In this document: in pieces, positions 30,411-33,675 of the stretch
Layout of the letters: each line of letters opens with the position of its first letter
Numbering within the stretch: position 1 is the stretch's first letter
DNA from: Sutterella wadsworthensis 2_1_59BFAA
Lineage (GTDB): Bacteria; Pseudomonadota; Gammaproteobacteria; Burkholderiales; Burkholderiaceae_F
NCBI RefSeq assembly: GCF_000297775.1
Contig: NZ_JH815518.1
Span: 73,149-137,148 of the forward strand
Direction: 5' to 3'
DNA: 64,000 nt
Notes under the pieces: generated by a model
What the model was told of the DNA's origin: nothing
Database searches by the model: none
Seen by the model: the letters and a program-made list of their open reading frames with translations, nothing else
Translations under genes and position numbers: made by a program

Positions 30411-31319
30411 ATGACCTTCAGAAAACAACCTCGACAATTCCGGATCTCGCATCTTGTTTCGGTGAGCGTGCTCGCCCTGACGCTCGGCGGAGCCGCGTTC
30501 TGGTCGGATTCCGACTATGCAAGCACTGCGCCCGCGCTTTCGTATGCGCAGGAGGACCTGAACGCTCGTGCGGATCTCAGGCAGCGCGAGGGCGTGCTCT
30601 CCGGCGTCACACCGTCCCTGTCGCTGCTCGATGCGCCTGCTGCGGCGAGGGAGGAGGCGACGGCCTCCTCGGAGGAGCTGACGGTCGAGGACAACGTCAT
30701 TCATGAAGGCAGCCCCCGCCATCTAGTGGCGGAATACATCAGCAGAACCTTCCGTGTCTCGATGCGGGATGCCCGCCAGATCACGGACTGGGCCGTGGAG
30801 ATCGGCGAGGCCAGGGATCTTGATCCCCTGCTCATTCTCGCCGTCATCGGAACGGAGTCGAGCTTCAAGCCGACGGCTAGGTCGAATGCGGGCGCAGAGG
30901 GCCTGATGCAGGTCATGACGAGCGTGCATGAGGCGAAATTCGATGCCTTCGGAGGCCCCGAGGCCGCCTTCGATCCCTATGCGAACATGGTGGTCGGCAC
31001 GGACATTCTTTCCTATCTGATCCGCCGGACGGGCAGCGTCAGGCGCGCCCTCAAGTGGTACAGCGGCGCGGCCAATCTCGAGGACGATCGAGGGTACGGA
31101 GCTCGCGTGATGCGCGAGCACGGCCTTCTTACCGTTGCGGCCGAAGGCAGGACCGATGCGGCGGTAAAGCTTCACCGCGCTGGCAAGTCGGCGTCGGAAG
31201 GCGGGGCTGGCAATGCCGCCAAGCTGGGCTTTGCGCACTGGACCAAACTCTCCGAACGGACCGAGGGCGCTCCCCGCGCCCGCAATGCAGACCTGCGCGG
31301 CAAGGCTCAGGCGTCCTGA
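30411..31319 (+). CDS. Lytic transglycosylase (SLT/GH23 domain), exported
   Basis: Cleaves peptidoglycan glycan strands to 1,6-anhydroMurNAc products. The 302 residues start with a basic N-terminus and hydrophobic stretch (about 12-30) that looks like a signal peptide or membrane anchor. The SLT domain (about 120-240) has LILAVIGTESSFKPTARSNAGAEGLMQVM; the Glu of GTESSF is the catalytic acid. ALKWYSGAANLEDDRGYGARVM is the C-terminal family block. It could feed the AmpD/Mpl recycling enzymes of this window. It is convergent with rsmE, with only 3 bp between stops. Confidence 0.92.
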   Translation: MTFRKQPRQFRISHLVSVSVLALTLGGAAFWSDSDYASTAPALSYAQEDLNARADLRQREGVLSGVTPSLSLLDAPAAAREEATASSEELTVEDNVIHEGSPRHLVAEYISRTFRVSMRDARQITDWAVEIGEARDLDPLLILAVIGTESSFKPTARSNAGAEGLMQVMTSVHEAKFDAFGGPEAAFDPYANMVVGTDILSYLIRRTGSVRRALKWYSGAANLEDDRGYGARVMREHGLLTVAAEGRTDAAVKLHRAGKSASEGGAGNAAKLGFAHWTKLSERTEGAPRARNADLRGKAQAS

Positions 31320-31322
31320 CGC

Positions 31323-32075
31323 CTACCGCTCTCCGTAGTCGCCCGTCAGGGTGTTGAGCCAGACGGCTGCGGCGATGCCCGCAGTTTCGGTTCTCAGTAC
31401 GCGCGGGCCGAGCAGGACGGCGAGCCAGCCGGCCTCTTCGGCCAGATCGATCTCCTCAGGCGAGAATCCGCCTTCGGGGCCCACGGCGAATGCCACCGAC
31501 TTCTCCTCGCCCGTCAGCCTCGTGCCGTGCGCGGCCCCGGGAGCCAGAACGAGCCTGCGGTCCGCCTGCGTGCCGAGCATCGCCTCCTTGAAGGAGGATG
31601 CGCCGCGGATTTCGGGCACGACGTTGCGTCCGCACTGTTCGGCGGCCGATACGGCGATGTCGCGAAGCTTCTGAAGGCGCTTTTCGAGACGTTCTCCCGC
31701 GAGCTTCGTCACGCTGCGCGCGGCGGGCGTCAGCACGATTTCGGAGACGCCCGTCTCTACGGCCTTTTCCACGATCCAGTCAAGCTTTTCAGGTGATACG
31801 AGCGCCTGCACGAGCGTCATGCGCACGGGGGGCTCGACCTCGGGCGTCTCGACCGCGTCGAGCGCAACGTAGGCGCCGTCCTGATCGAATCTGATGCGGC
31901 CCCGCCACTGGCGTCCCGTTCCGTTGAAGACGACCGTCTCCTCGCCTGTTCGCAGACGAAGAGCGCGTCCCGCGTGGTGGGCGGCCTTGGGCGGCAGGAC
32001 GACTTCCGCCTGCTCGGCGAGAGCCTTGTCGAGCGCTTCGGTCTCGACTTCAACGTAAAAGCGTGGTGCGGCCAT
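31323..32075 (-). CDS. rsmE: 16S rRNA m3U1498 methyltransferase RsmE
   Basis: A SPOUT methyltransferase acting on 30S subunits. The 250 residues have an N-terminal PUA-like domain (AAPRFYVEVE to about residue 75) and a SPOUT knot with AAEQCGRNVVPEI, FAVGPEGGFSPEEIDLA and LGPRVLRTETAGIAAAVWL. All signature loops are intact. Its ribosome-binding site AAGGAG overlaps the predicted right end of the tnpB element, which therefore lies between rsmE and its ancestral promoter; expression may depend on transcription through tnpB. Confidence 0.95.
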   Translation of the reverse strand: MAAPRFYVEVETEALDKALAEQAEVVLPPKAAHHAGRALRLRTGEETVVFNGTGRQWRGRIRFDQDGAYVALDAVETPEVEPPVRMTLVQALVSPEKLDWIVEKAVETGVSEIVLTPAARSVTKLAGERLEKRLQKLRDIAVSAAEQCGRNVVPEIRGASSFKEAMLGTQADRRLVLAPGAAHGTRLTGEEKSVAFAVGPEGGFSPEEIDLAEEAGWLAVLLGPRVLRTETAGIAAAVWLNTLTGDYGER

Positions 32076-32093
32076 GAGTTCTCCTTGACGTTC

Positions 32094-32115
32094 TCTCCGC
32101 CGTGAACGACGGAGA
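32094..32115 (-). repeat. Right-end hairpin of the tnpB element
   Basis: TCTCCG-C-CGT / ACG-A-CGGAGA with a GA loop, 12 bp beyond the tnpB stop. In TnpB systems the guide RNA is derived from the 3' end of tnpB plus this right end, so this stem is a likely 3' scaffold helix of that RNA. Confidence 0.75.
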
Positions 32116-32127
32116 TTCTCTACTGCG

Positions 32128-33375
32128 TTAGCAACTTGCGCTGCTGATTACTTCGGTGGATTCCTGCTGCTGATTCGGCGCCGGCTTTTTAGACCGACCC
32201 AAATTCACTTGAGCCTGAGCATTCCTCTCAGACTCCCCACAGGCTAACGAGCTTCGTCCGCGCTCTTTGATGTTGATCGCAGCCACGACGTCCGCGTTTC
32301 CCTGATGTCCGCAGGAAACGCATTTGAACAACGCCTGCGTCTTGCGATTGTCTTTGGAAACACAGCCGCATATCGGGCAGGTGCGACTTGTATTCTGCGG
32401 CGGCACCGTATGTACGTGTCCGCCAAGTCTCAACGCCTTCCAATCAAGCTTGGAGAAAAATATCCTCCAACCCTGATCGAGAATGGAACGGTTGAGACCA
32501 CTCTTTTGTGCAACGCGAGTGCCGTGCTCCTCAACAGTTCCCTTCGCGGATGCCGTCATGTTCTTGATCTTCAAGTCCTCTCTGAAAATCTCTGCGTGGT
32601 TCTTGCAGATATTCAGCGAGACCTTTTCGATGAAATCACGACGGACATTGGCGATATGCTGATGTAGCCTTGCAATCGCTGCCTTCTGTTTGCGCCAATT
32701 CTTCTCGAACTTCTGCATTCTTGCGAGCCTGCGCTGCATCCTGGCGAGCTTCTTAAGCGCCTTCTTGAGTGCGCCGCACGGTTCGAAGAACGTGCCGTCG
32801 GAAAGCGTGCAGAAACGGACGCATCCCATGTCAATGCCGATACTGTCGCCGGCATGCTTGGGAGGTTCCATTTCGTACTCGGTCTGGATGGAAACATACC
32901 ATCCGTCGGTTTGTCGGGAAACCGTTACGTTCTTGGCCTTGCCTTGAATGAAGCGGCTTCGCTTGTATTTGACCCAGCCGATGCTCGGCAGATAAATCTG
33001 CCGACGTCCTTCATCAATCTTGAAGCCCTGGGGGAAGCGGAAGGAGTCCGTGGTCACGAACTTCTTGTGCTTCTTCGGGAAAGCCGTCAGACCTTTGAAG
33101 AACTTCTGGAAGCCGTCCATCAGATCCTTCAGCGACTGTTGGAGAACCTGAGAGTGCGTTTCCCTCAACCAGGGATTCTGCTCCTTCCAAACCAGCAGTT
33201 CGGTGCAGAGCTTCGCATAGCTGAGATGAAAGGCAGGATCCGCTGTACGACGCTCTTCATTCCATGCAAGCCCTTGGTTGTACACCCAGCGCGTGCAGCC
33301 GGCGAAGCGGGACATCTTTTTGTCCTGAGCTCCGTTGGGTTTCAGTTTGAACGAAAAGCCTTGGCGAATACTCAT
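32128..33375 (-). CDS. tnpB: RNA-guided endonuclease TnpB (IS200/IS605 family)
   Basis: 415 residues with a complete RuvC-like active site: D182 (SIGIDMG), E266 (FREDLKIKNM) and D362 (GNADVVAAINI). The zinc ribbon has C333/C336 (CPICG) and C352/C355 (CVSCG) inside the split RuvC domain. The N-terminal helix-turn-helix OrfB region (about 1-60) and the basic coiled segment KKALKKLARMQRRLARMQ (about 204-221) are typical. No frameshift or stop is seen, so it could be active. No tnpA is adjacent; the element would need a transposase in trans. Hand counts of its DNA give about 50% G+C, lower than its neighbours. Confidence 0.95.
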   Translation of the reverse strand: MSIRQGFSFKLKPNGAQDKKMSRFAGCTRWVYNQGLAWNEERRTADPAFHLSYAKLCTELLVWKEQNPWLRETHSQVLQQSLKDLMDGFQKFFKGLTAFPKKHKKFVTTDSFRFPQGFKIDEGRRQIYLPSIGWVKYKRSRFIQGKAKNVTVSRQTDGWYVSIQTEYEMEPPKHAGDSIGIDMGCVRFCTLSDGTFFEPCGALKKALKKLARMQRRLARMQKFEKNWRKQKAAIARLHQHIANVRRDFIEKVSLNICKNHAEIFREDLKIKNMTASAKGTVEEHGTRVAQKSGLNRSILDQGWRIFFSKLDWKALRLGGHVHTVPPQNTSRTCPICGCVSKDNRKTQALFKCVSCGHQGNADVVAAINIKERGRSSLACGESERNAQAQVNLGRSKKPAPNQQQESTEVISSASC

Positions 33376-33407
33376 GCCTATATGATACTAGCGTTCATCA
33401 AAAACAC

Positions 33408-33449
33408 GCGGCTTATATCTCCGCCCTGAAGGACGGAGATATAAGCCGC
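33408..33449 (-). repeat. Left-end hairpin of the tnpB element
   Basis: A 16-bp perfect outer stem, GCGGCTTATATCTCCG with CGGAGATATAAGCCGC, a C-A mismatch, then CCT/AGG around a GA loop. The inner 22 nt (33418-33439) match the right-end hairpin at all but one base pair position. This is the strongest structure in the window. Confidence 0.85.
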
Positions 33450-33560
33450 AATTGGGTAAAACAGGATGGGAAGTCTGCGGACATGCGGGTTTCCGCATTC
33501 CGAATCCATGTGCGGAGAGGAGCTCCGTGGTTTCACACTCGGTTGGCCCCCTCCTTTTGT

Positions 33561-33569
33561 TGCTAAAAT
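33561..33569 (+). promoter_or_regulatory. Extended -10 element for tkt
   Basis: TGC followed by TAAAAT, about 105 bp before the tkt start, within an A+T-rich stretch. A poor -35 (TTGGCC) stands 15 bp upstream of the -10, which suits an extended -10 promoter. Confidence 0.5.
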
Positions 33570-33675
33570 AATAGATTAAGTCAGACAGCGGCGTACAAAC
33601 CTTAGGGAAGGTCGCCGCCTTGCCTTTTCGGGGTTTCTTCCCTCCGGTTTTCTTCAATCCGCTCACAGAAATACT

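What the first reader, a model, noticed from the sequence alone, without database searches (positions are those of the whole stretch)
32085..33459. tnpB element inserted exactly at the rsmE ribosome-binding site
On the minus strand the element is bracketed by TTAC on the left and TCAA on the right, the cleavage tetramers known for IS608. Immediately after TCAA comes GGAGAACTC and the rsmE ATG. Removing the element would join TTTTAC to GGAGAACTCATG and restore a normal rsmE leader with its Shine-Dalgarno intact. The insertion therefore separates rsmE from its ancestral promoter by about 1.37 kb, and rsmE may now be read from tnpB transcription.
Basis: partly seen in the sequence, partly recalled or inferred. 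Interest (0 to 1): 0.7.

Follow-up and report, generated by a model that had tools for sequence, protein, structure and literature searches.

The report
Immobilised TnpB element at rsmE start
A small mobile element carrying an RNA-guided DNA-cutting enzyme sits directly in front of the ribosome-binding site of a housekeeping gene, and the DNA word that should let it be cut out on one side has been erased, so it is probably stuck there and may now influence that gene.

Summary
A 1371-bp tnpB-only IS200/IS605 element of the IS608 type occupies 32085-33455 on the minus strand. TTAC (33456-33459) lies outside its left end; TCAA is its last four bases; GGAGAACTC and the rsmE ATG follow. Other copies fix both ends, and unoccupied sites were found for two related copies, but not for the rsmE site, for lack of a same-species genome.

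Two things were missed. First, this copy's left hairpin has become a near-perfect palindrome, which removes the guide that reads TTAC in IS608. Of 16 other left ends, 13 keep AAAG and 3 have AAAA beside TTAT instead of TTAC, so guide and target change together; only this copy has ATAT. The one same-family tnpA found in the genome is split. The copy is predicted to be locked in place. Second, TnpB keeps its catalytic residues and its 3' end encodes a covarying guide-RNA scaffold whose predicted guide is the rsmE ribosome-binding site and start codon.

Loss of the old promoter and read-through from tnpB are plausible but untested. The element is a new member of a known kind. The boldest open reading is that TnpB, bound to its guide RNA in a tnpB-rsmE transcript, gates rsmE translation.

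The parts
33456..33461 (-). TTTTAC left flank; TTAC (33456-33459) is the IS608-type left cleavage/target tetramer and likely TnpB TAM
   Evidence: 13 of 17 located left ends border TTAC, 3 TTAT, 1 neither
32085..33455 (-). tnpB-only IS200/IS605 element (IS608-type ends), 1371 bp
33407..33450 (-). left-end hairpin, here a near-perfect 20-pair palindrome followed by TGTTTTT (terminator-like); AAAG guide replaced by ATAT
32128..33375 (-). tnpB, 415 aa, RuvC D/E/D and zinc-ribbon cysteines retained
32085..32264 (-). omega-RNA scaffold (start approximate), overlapping the 3' end of tnpB and running to the right end
   Evidence: covariation on 15 sequences, 13 distinct
32085..32119 (-). right end: GAAT guide, hairpin CTCCGTCGTTCACGGCGGAG, terminal TCAA (32085-32088)
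32065..32084 (-). predicted 20-nt TnpB guide = rsmE Shine-Dalgarno, ATG and first codons; only match in the genome with up to 3 mismatches
   Evidence: position from the right end; uniqueness
32081..32084 (-). rsmE Shine-Dalgarno GGAG, extended to AAGGAG by the last AA of the element
31323..32075 (-). rsmE, 16S rRNA m3U1498 methyltransferase, 250 aa
33676..35688 (+). tkt, transketolase, divergent neighbour

Best explanation
An IS608-type, tnpB-only IS200/IS605 element inserted 3' of a TTTTAC on the rsmE-sense strand, directly against the rsmE Shine-Dalgarno. It later lost the left guide (AAAG to ATAT) when its imperfect left hairpin became a near-perfect one, so a Y1 transposase should no longer recognise TTAC at the left end and the copy is fixed. 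TnpB is predicted to remain an active RNA-guided nuclease. Its omega-RNA, made from the 3' end of tnpB and the right end, carries the rsmE ribosome-binding site and start codon as guide, so it would cut TTAC-GGAGAACTCATG empty alleles and favour the filled allele. rsmE is probably transcribed from within the element or by read-through; the long ORF beyond it (30411-31319) runs the other way. Shown: anatomy, ends, guide change, catalytic residues, RNA covariation. Inferred: order of events, loss of mobility, nuclease activity, guide use, rsmE transcription.
For: Ends. Unoccupied sites of related copies. IS608 code CL TTAC, CR TCAA, GL AAAG, GR GAAT: PMC5934647 passages. Guide: of 16 other left ends, 13 have AAAG and 3 have AAAA; the three with AAAA border TTAT instead of TTAC, the change the guide code predicts at the last base. 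This copy alone has TTATAT for GTAAAG, the exact complement of the opposite arm ATATAA. TnpB: NF040570 304.5 bits against cutoff 100; RuvC residues aligned to ISDra2 TnpB structures; dN/dS 0.18-0.21 against the two other full copies. Omega-RNA: 93.9% of cells paired, 20 of 44 pairs with two-sided changes, 0 of 500 shuffles as high on four of five measures, slid versions 34-45% paired. Guide 20-mer unique in the genome.
Against: No empty allele of the rsmE site itself was available. Mobility loss is extrapolated from IS608 biochemistry. No promoter for tnpB or rsmE was recognised on the minus strand. dN/dS includes history before this insertion. The fifth covariation measure, further pair types, was not above shuffles (215 of 500), and the structure tested was derived from the same alignment. 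No curated Rfam match in the element; the best weak one on this strand is sot0042, 20.3 bits against a cutoff of 88. The C9 left end borders neither TTAC nor TTAT.
Confidence: 0.85

Rival explanations
1. TnpB as cis regulator of rsmE: TnpB trims the tnpB-rsmE transcript at the 5' side of its scaffold and stays bound, so the guide segment (the rsmE Shine-Dalgarno and ATG) is held in the ribonucleoprotein and rsmE translation falls as TnpB rises.
For: The predicted guide is the ribosome-binding site and start codon. The scaffold covaries. [quoted passage not shown] The scan found no terminator-like site on the minus strand between tnpB and rsmE. The Shine-Dalgarno is predicted stronger than in the empty form.
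Against: No expression data. Co-transcription not shown. The arrangement follows automatically whenever a tnpB element lands in front of a start codon, so it may be without effect.
Confidence: 0.12
2. Inert passenger: a dying insertion with little effect; tnpB is intact only because it is recent or was selected while mobile, and rsmE is weakly expressed or not needed.
For: Left guide lost; the same-family tnpA is split in C9; partial copies in the genome.
Against: tnpB is open in all three full-length copies at pairwise dS 0.10-0.18 with dN/dS 0.10-0.21; the rsmE frame is intact.
Confidence: 0.4
3. The left-end change is an assembly or sequencing artefact of a hairpin, and the copy is still mobile.
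For: Palindromes are prone to errors (recalled); reads are not available here.
Against: Apart from the loop tip, the difference from the other copies is confined to the six bases GTAAAG/TTATAT; the assembly has 11 contigs at 98.42% completeness; the loop tip CCTT resembles the G007 copies rather than the other copies of this genome.
Confidence: 0.07

Closest known systems
IS608 (IS200/IS605 family, Helicobacter pylori)
   Same: TTAC left and TCAA right cleavage tetramers, GAAT right guide, subterminal hairpins; AAAG left guide in most other copies (IS608 features from PMC5934647 passages)
   Different: No tnpA in this copy; left guide replaced by ATAT; left hairpin almost fully paired
IS1341-type tnpB-only elements (name recalled)
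   Same: tnpB with left and right ends and no tnpA
   Different: Relatives with a divergent tnpA exist in G009 and G010 and a split one in C9, so the tnpB-only state here looks derived
ISDra2 TnpB (OMEGA nuclease)
   Same: RuvC residues and zinc ribbon aligned; 3'-end RNA scaffold with flank-derived guide (PMC8612924 passages)
   Different: Target motif expected TTAC/TTTAC rather than TTGAT
TldR, TnpB-derived RNA-guided transcription factors (PMC13418256, start of abstract in the listing)
   Same: TnpB-like protein; regulation of a gene through a guide
   Different: TldR proteins are nuclease-dead (recalled); here all three catalytic residues are kept, and the guide lies in cis

Membership tests
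IS200/IS605, IS608 type | Left cleavage tetramer TTAC next to the left end | tested here: met
   13 of 17 located left ends border TTAC, 3 TTAT, 1 neither
IS200/IS605, IS608 type | Right end terminates in TCAA | tested here: met
   17 of 18 located right ends, some located with that string
IS200/IS605, IS608 type | Right guide GAAT 5' of the right hairpin | tested here: met
   GAATC invariant in 15 of 15 aligned right ends
IS200/IS605, IS608 type | Left guide AAAG 5' of the left hairpin foot | tested here: not met
   ATAT in this copy; AAAG in 13 and AAAA in 3 of 16 other left ends. Read as a secondary loss in this copy, so membership rests on the family and the other features
IS200/IS605, IS608 type | Y1 transposase TnpA encoded | tested here: not met
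   No Y1_Tnp match on C6, where the window lies; split in the C9 copy, open in G009 and G010
IS1341-type (tnpB-only) | Both ends and tnpB, no tnpA | tested here: met
RNA-guided TnpB nuclease | Guided-TnpB profile above curated cutoff | tested here: met
   NF040570, 304.5 against 100 bits
RNA-guided TnpB nuclease | RuvC catalytic D, E, D | tested here: met
   alignment to 8h1j/8bf8; D191 named in PMC8612924, the E and second D positions recalled
RNA-guided TnpB nuclease | 3'-end structured RNA scaffold next to a flank-derived guide | tested here: met
RNA-guided TnpB nuclease | TAM-dependent DNA cleavage | not testable with these tools
   needs a biochemical or plasmid interference test
TldR repressor | Inactivated RuvC residues (recalled definition) | tested here: not met
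   all three residues kept

The most novel reading that the evidence does not exclude
A nuclease-competent TnpB, immobilised by palindrome correction of its left end, has become a cis-acting translational regulator: the tnpB-rsmE transcript contains the omega-RNA, its guide is the rsmE Shine-Dalgarno and start codon, and TnpB binding to its own guide RNA gates rsmE translation while the same complex destroys incoming empty rsmE alleles.
Probability: 0.1. Interest if true: 0.8.

Novelty: new member of a known kind. Interest (0 to 1): 0.42.

Why it matters
It is a clean natural case in which the predicted guide of a TnpB element is a gene's ribosome-binding site and start codon, in an element that seems unable to leave. 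That allows two direct tests: whether a TnpB that can no longer serve transposition is still kept for allele exclusion, and whether omega-RNA formation on a read-through mRNA changes translation of the gene behind it. The family also offers a natural test of the IS608 guide code: AAAG goes with TTAC and AAAA with TTAT, while this copy has a guide that fits neither.

Tried and rejected
Empty allele of the rsmE site: sought in 11 genus relatives. None has the element in its rsmE locus, but the leaders are too diverged to show the exact join, so this stays open. Promoter by consensus scan: one plus-strand site (33543-33572), close to chance, none on the minus strand. Rfam: no curated match in the element; weak sot0042 similarity not used. 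TldR reading rejected because the catalytic residues are kept. A rule that these elements sit at gene starts: by inspection 3 of 10 right junctions lie 3-9 nt before a likely gene start (rsmE, an ORF I read as dgkA, a 252-aa ORF in G011), and 4 of 10 by the mechanical criterion if a doubtful C8 frame is counted, against 1 of 57 TTAC sites in the window. The criterion was chosen after seeing the data and two of the ten junctions are the same site in G009 and G010, so I do not claim it. The C8 site against G005 gave no clear join.

Left guide count: my first count, 13 of 13 with AAAG, was partly circular, because four of those ends (G020, G012, G013a, G026) had been located with strings containing AAAGC. 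I repeated the search with the opposite arm GATATAA plus hairpin instead, over the window and 27 loci. It found 10 other ends with AAAG (three of those four among them; G020 was missed for a mismatch in its arm), and 3 more distant ends (L075, L077, L090) with AAAA. L061 and L062 have lost that arm, so their AAAG comes, where they were located by DNA similarity. In 14 of the 27 loci it found nothing, which includes L061, L062 and L071; L034-L037, L063, L064, L073, L076, L086, L088 and L092 give no left end by either search.

Right ends: 18 were located; 15 were aligned and three divergent ones (G060, G033, G063a) left out. TnpA: 7 of the 8 Y1_Tnp places were compared with the G010 TnpA; the weakest, below the family's cutoff (C7:151101), was not. 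Whether another TnpA could act in trans was not tested. Literature: searches (12 of 17 listed; 1 of 1; 15 of 23 listed; none found) showed no title or abstract start on a TnpB guide at a downstream ribosome-binding site or on hairpin correction in IS605 ends. The library holds open-licence papers only, so absence is weak.

Full report
What is there. On the minus strand the window reads CCTGTTTTAC, then CCAATTGCGGC... to ...GAGAACGTCAA, then GGAGAACTCATG, the start of rsmE. Between the two tetramers lies one long sense ORF, tnpB of 415 aa, which matches the guided-TnpB family at 304.5 bits against a cutoff of 100. There is no tnpA in the element: the Y1 transposase profile finds eight places in this genome, none on C6 where the window lies. 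The neighbours are rsmE and the divergent tkt. The window's genus is Sutterella by kinship: G007 has the contig length of LR994475.1, an uncultured canine Sutterella.

Are the ends real? The genome holds a second full copy (C8) whose match to the query ends exactly at TCAA and just outside TTAC, a third (C9) with its left part rearranged, an internal deletion derivative (C10) and a left-end fragment (C1). The four right ends read in this genome agree in GTCAA with unrelated flanks. In the wider family I located 17 left ends: 13 border TTAC, 3 border TTAT and C9 borders neither. I located 18 right ends, 17 of them ending in TCAA; part of these were located with strings that contain GTCAA. Unoccupied sites exist for two related copies. 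G009:C25 carries both flanks of the G010:C22 insertion side by side, meeting at CTCTAC-GAC where the filled site has CTTTAC | GAC. The C10 site is unoccupied in G005 and G007, though the TTAC itself is not conserved there. The C8 site gave no clear join. For the rsmE site I had no close genome. The 11 relatives of the genus have rsmE at 54-72% identity and none has the element in its rsmE locus. The rsmE-tkt spacing is 129-211 bp in eight of them, 233 bp in L017 and about 187 bp in G007; in L019 it is 1314 bp by the script and another reading frame lies between. Removal of the element would leave 229 bp.

The left end of this copy is altered. In IS608 a tetranucleotide guide 5' of each hairpin pairs with the cleavage site: AAAG with TTAC on the left, GAAT with TCAA on the right (PMC5934647, passages). 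Here GAAT is present; it is invariant in the 15 aligned right ends. On the left, 13 of 16 other ends have AAAG inside a GTAAAG / ATATAA internal loop (the ATATAA arm is missing in the two G007 derivatives), and 3 have AAAA. Those three, in G060 and G063, border TTAT instead of TTAC: the last guide base and the last target base change together, as a base-pairing guide predicts. Their exact left boundary is inferred by comparison. In this copy GTAAAG has become TTATAT, the exact reverse complement of the opposite arm. Pairing in the loop rises from 3 of 6 to 6 of 6, and the hairpin goes from -20.6 kcal/mol (C1 form) or -14.4 (C8) to -37.3. By my own arithmetic, three independent changes falling on exactly the three mismatches and all to the pairing base would have a chance of about 1 in 540, so a single hairpin-templated correction is the simpler account; that mechanism is recalled from general knowledge. 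The predicted result is a left end that a TnpA cannot read at TTAC. The hairpin followed by TGTTTTT also looks like a terminator on the tnpB strand (4 terminator-like sites found in the region against 2.4 expected), which could block transcripts coming from the old rsmE side.

TnpA. The only tnpA in this genome close to the family (58-59% to that of G010) is in C9 and is split into two pieces about 370 bp apart. The others compared (six further places, seven of eight in all with the two C9 pieces) are 34-45% identical over their main stretch, and were not tested for activity in trans. The complete element is seen in G009 and G010: divergent tnpA and tnpB between the same kind of ends.

TnpB and its RNA. 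The RuvC residues align to the ISDra2 TnpB structures. tnpB is open in all three full-length copies, with pairwise dN/dS 0.10-0.21; part of that history may predate this insertion. The 190 nt before the right end form a covarying structure in 15 sequences, 13 of them distinct: 93.9% of cells paired, 81 cells with changes on both sides against 27.5 in shuffles, 0 of 500 shuffles as high on four of five measures, and 34-45% paired when slid. The fifth measure, further pair types, was not above shuffles (215 of 500), and the structure was derived from the same alignment. This is what a TnpB guide-RNA scaffold should look like. In ISDra2 the guide is the roughly 16 nt derived from DNA next to the right end (PMC8612924, passages). 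Here that is the rsmE Shine-Dalgarno, ATG and first codons. The 20-mer occurs once in the genome with up to 3 mismatches, at this flank, where it follows GTCAA and not TTAC, so self-cutting is not expected.

How it most likely works. TnpB with this guide would cut the empty allele TTTTAC-GGAGAACTCATGG and favour the filled one, the role proposed for TnpB generally (PMC8612924, passages; PMC11870625, abstract). rsmE keeps its Shine-Dalgarno; the last AA of the element extends it to AAGGAG, with predicted pairing of -8.5 against -6.6 kcal/mol for the empty form. Because a TnpB has been shown to process the 5' but not the 3' side of its own mRNA (PMC10278001, passages), a tnpB-rsmE transcript could carry a bound TnpB right at the rsmE start. 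That is the most novel reading and is untested.

Verdict. The element is a new member of a known kind in an informative position.

Noticed in passing
L075, L077, L090 (G060, G063) left ends: Three distant family members have left guide AAAA and border TTAT, where the rest have AAAG and TTAC: guide and target appear to covary.
   Followed up: partly
L040 (G000:C10:24907-25134): A 228-bp derivative that keeps the left end and the 3' RNA scaffold but not the body of tnpB, inserted 7 nt before an ORF I read as dgkA: a possible guide-only element.
   Followed up: partly
L038 (G000:C9:152299-157457): Copy with divergent tnpA split by about 370 bp; its apparent left end lies about 3 kb beyond tnpA, past other ORFs, and borders neither TTAC nor TTAT.
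   Followed up: partly
L061 and L062 (G007): Two derivatives that join the left end directly to about the last 40% of tnpB; L061 keeps the right end, L062 has lost it.
   Followed up: no
right junctions of the window, L040 and L064: Three of ten right junctions lie 3-9 nt before a likely gene start; post hoc and small.
   Followed up: partly
left flanks of L040 and L041: By eye, the left flanks of the C10 and C1 copies look like terminator hairpins ending in TTAC; not folded.
   Followed up: no
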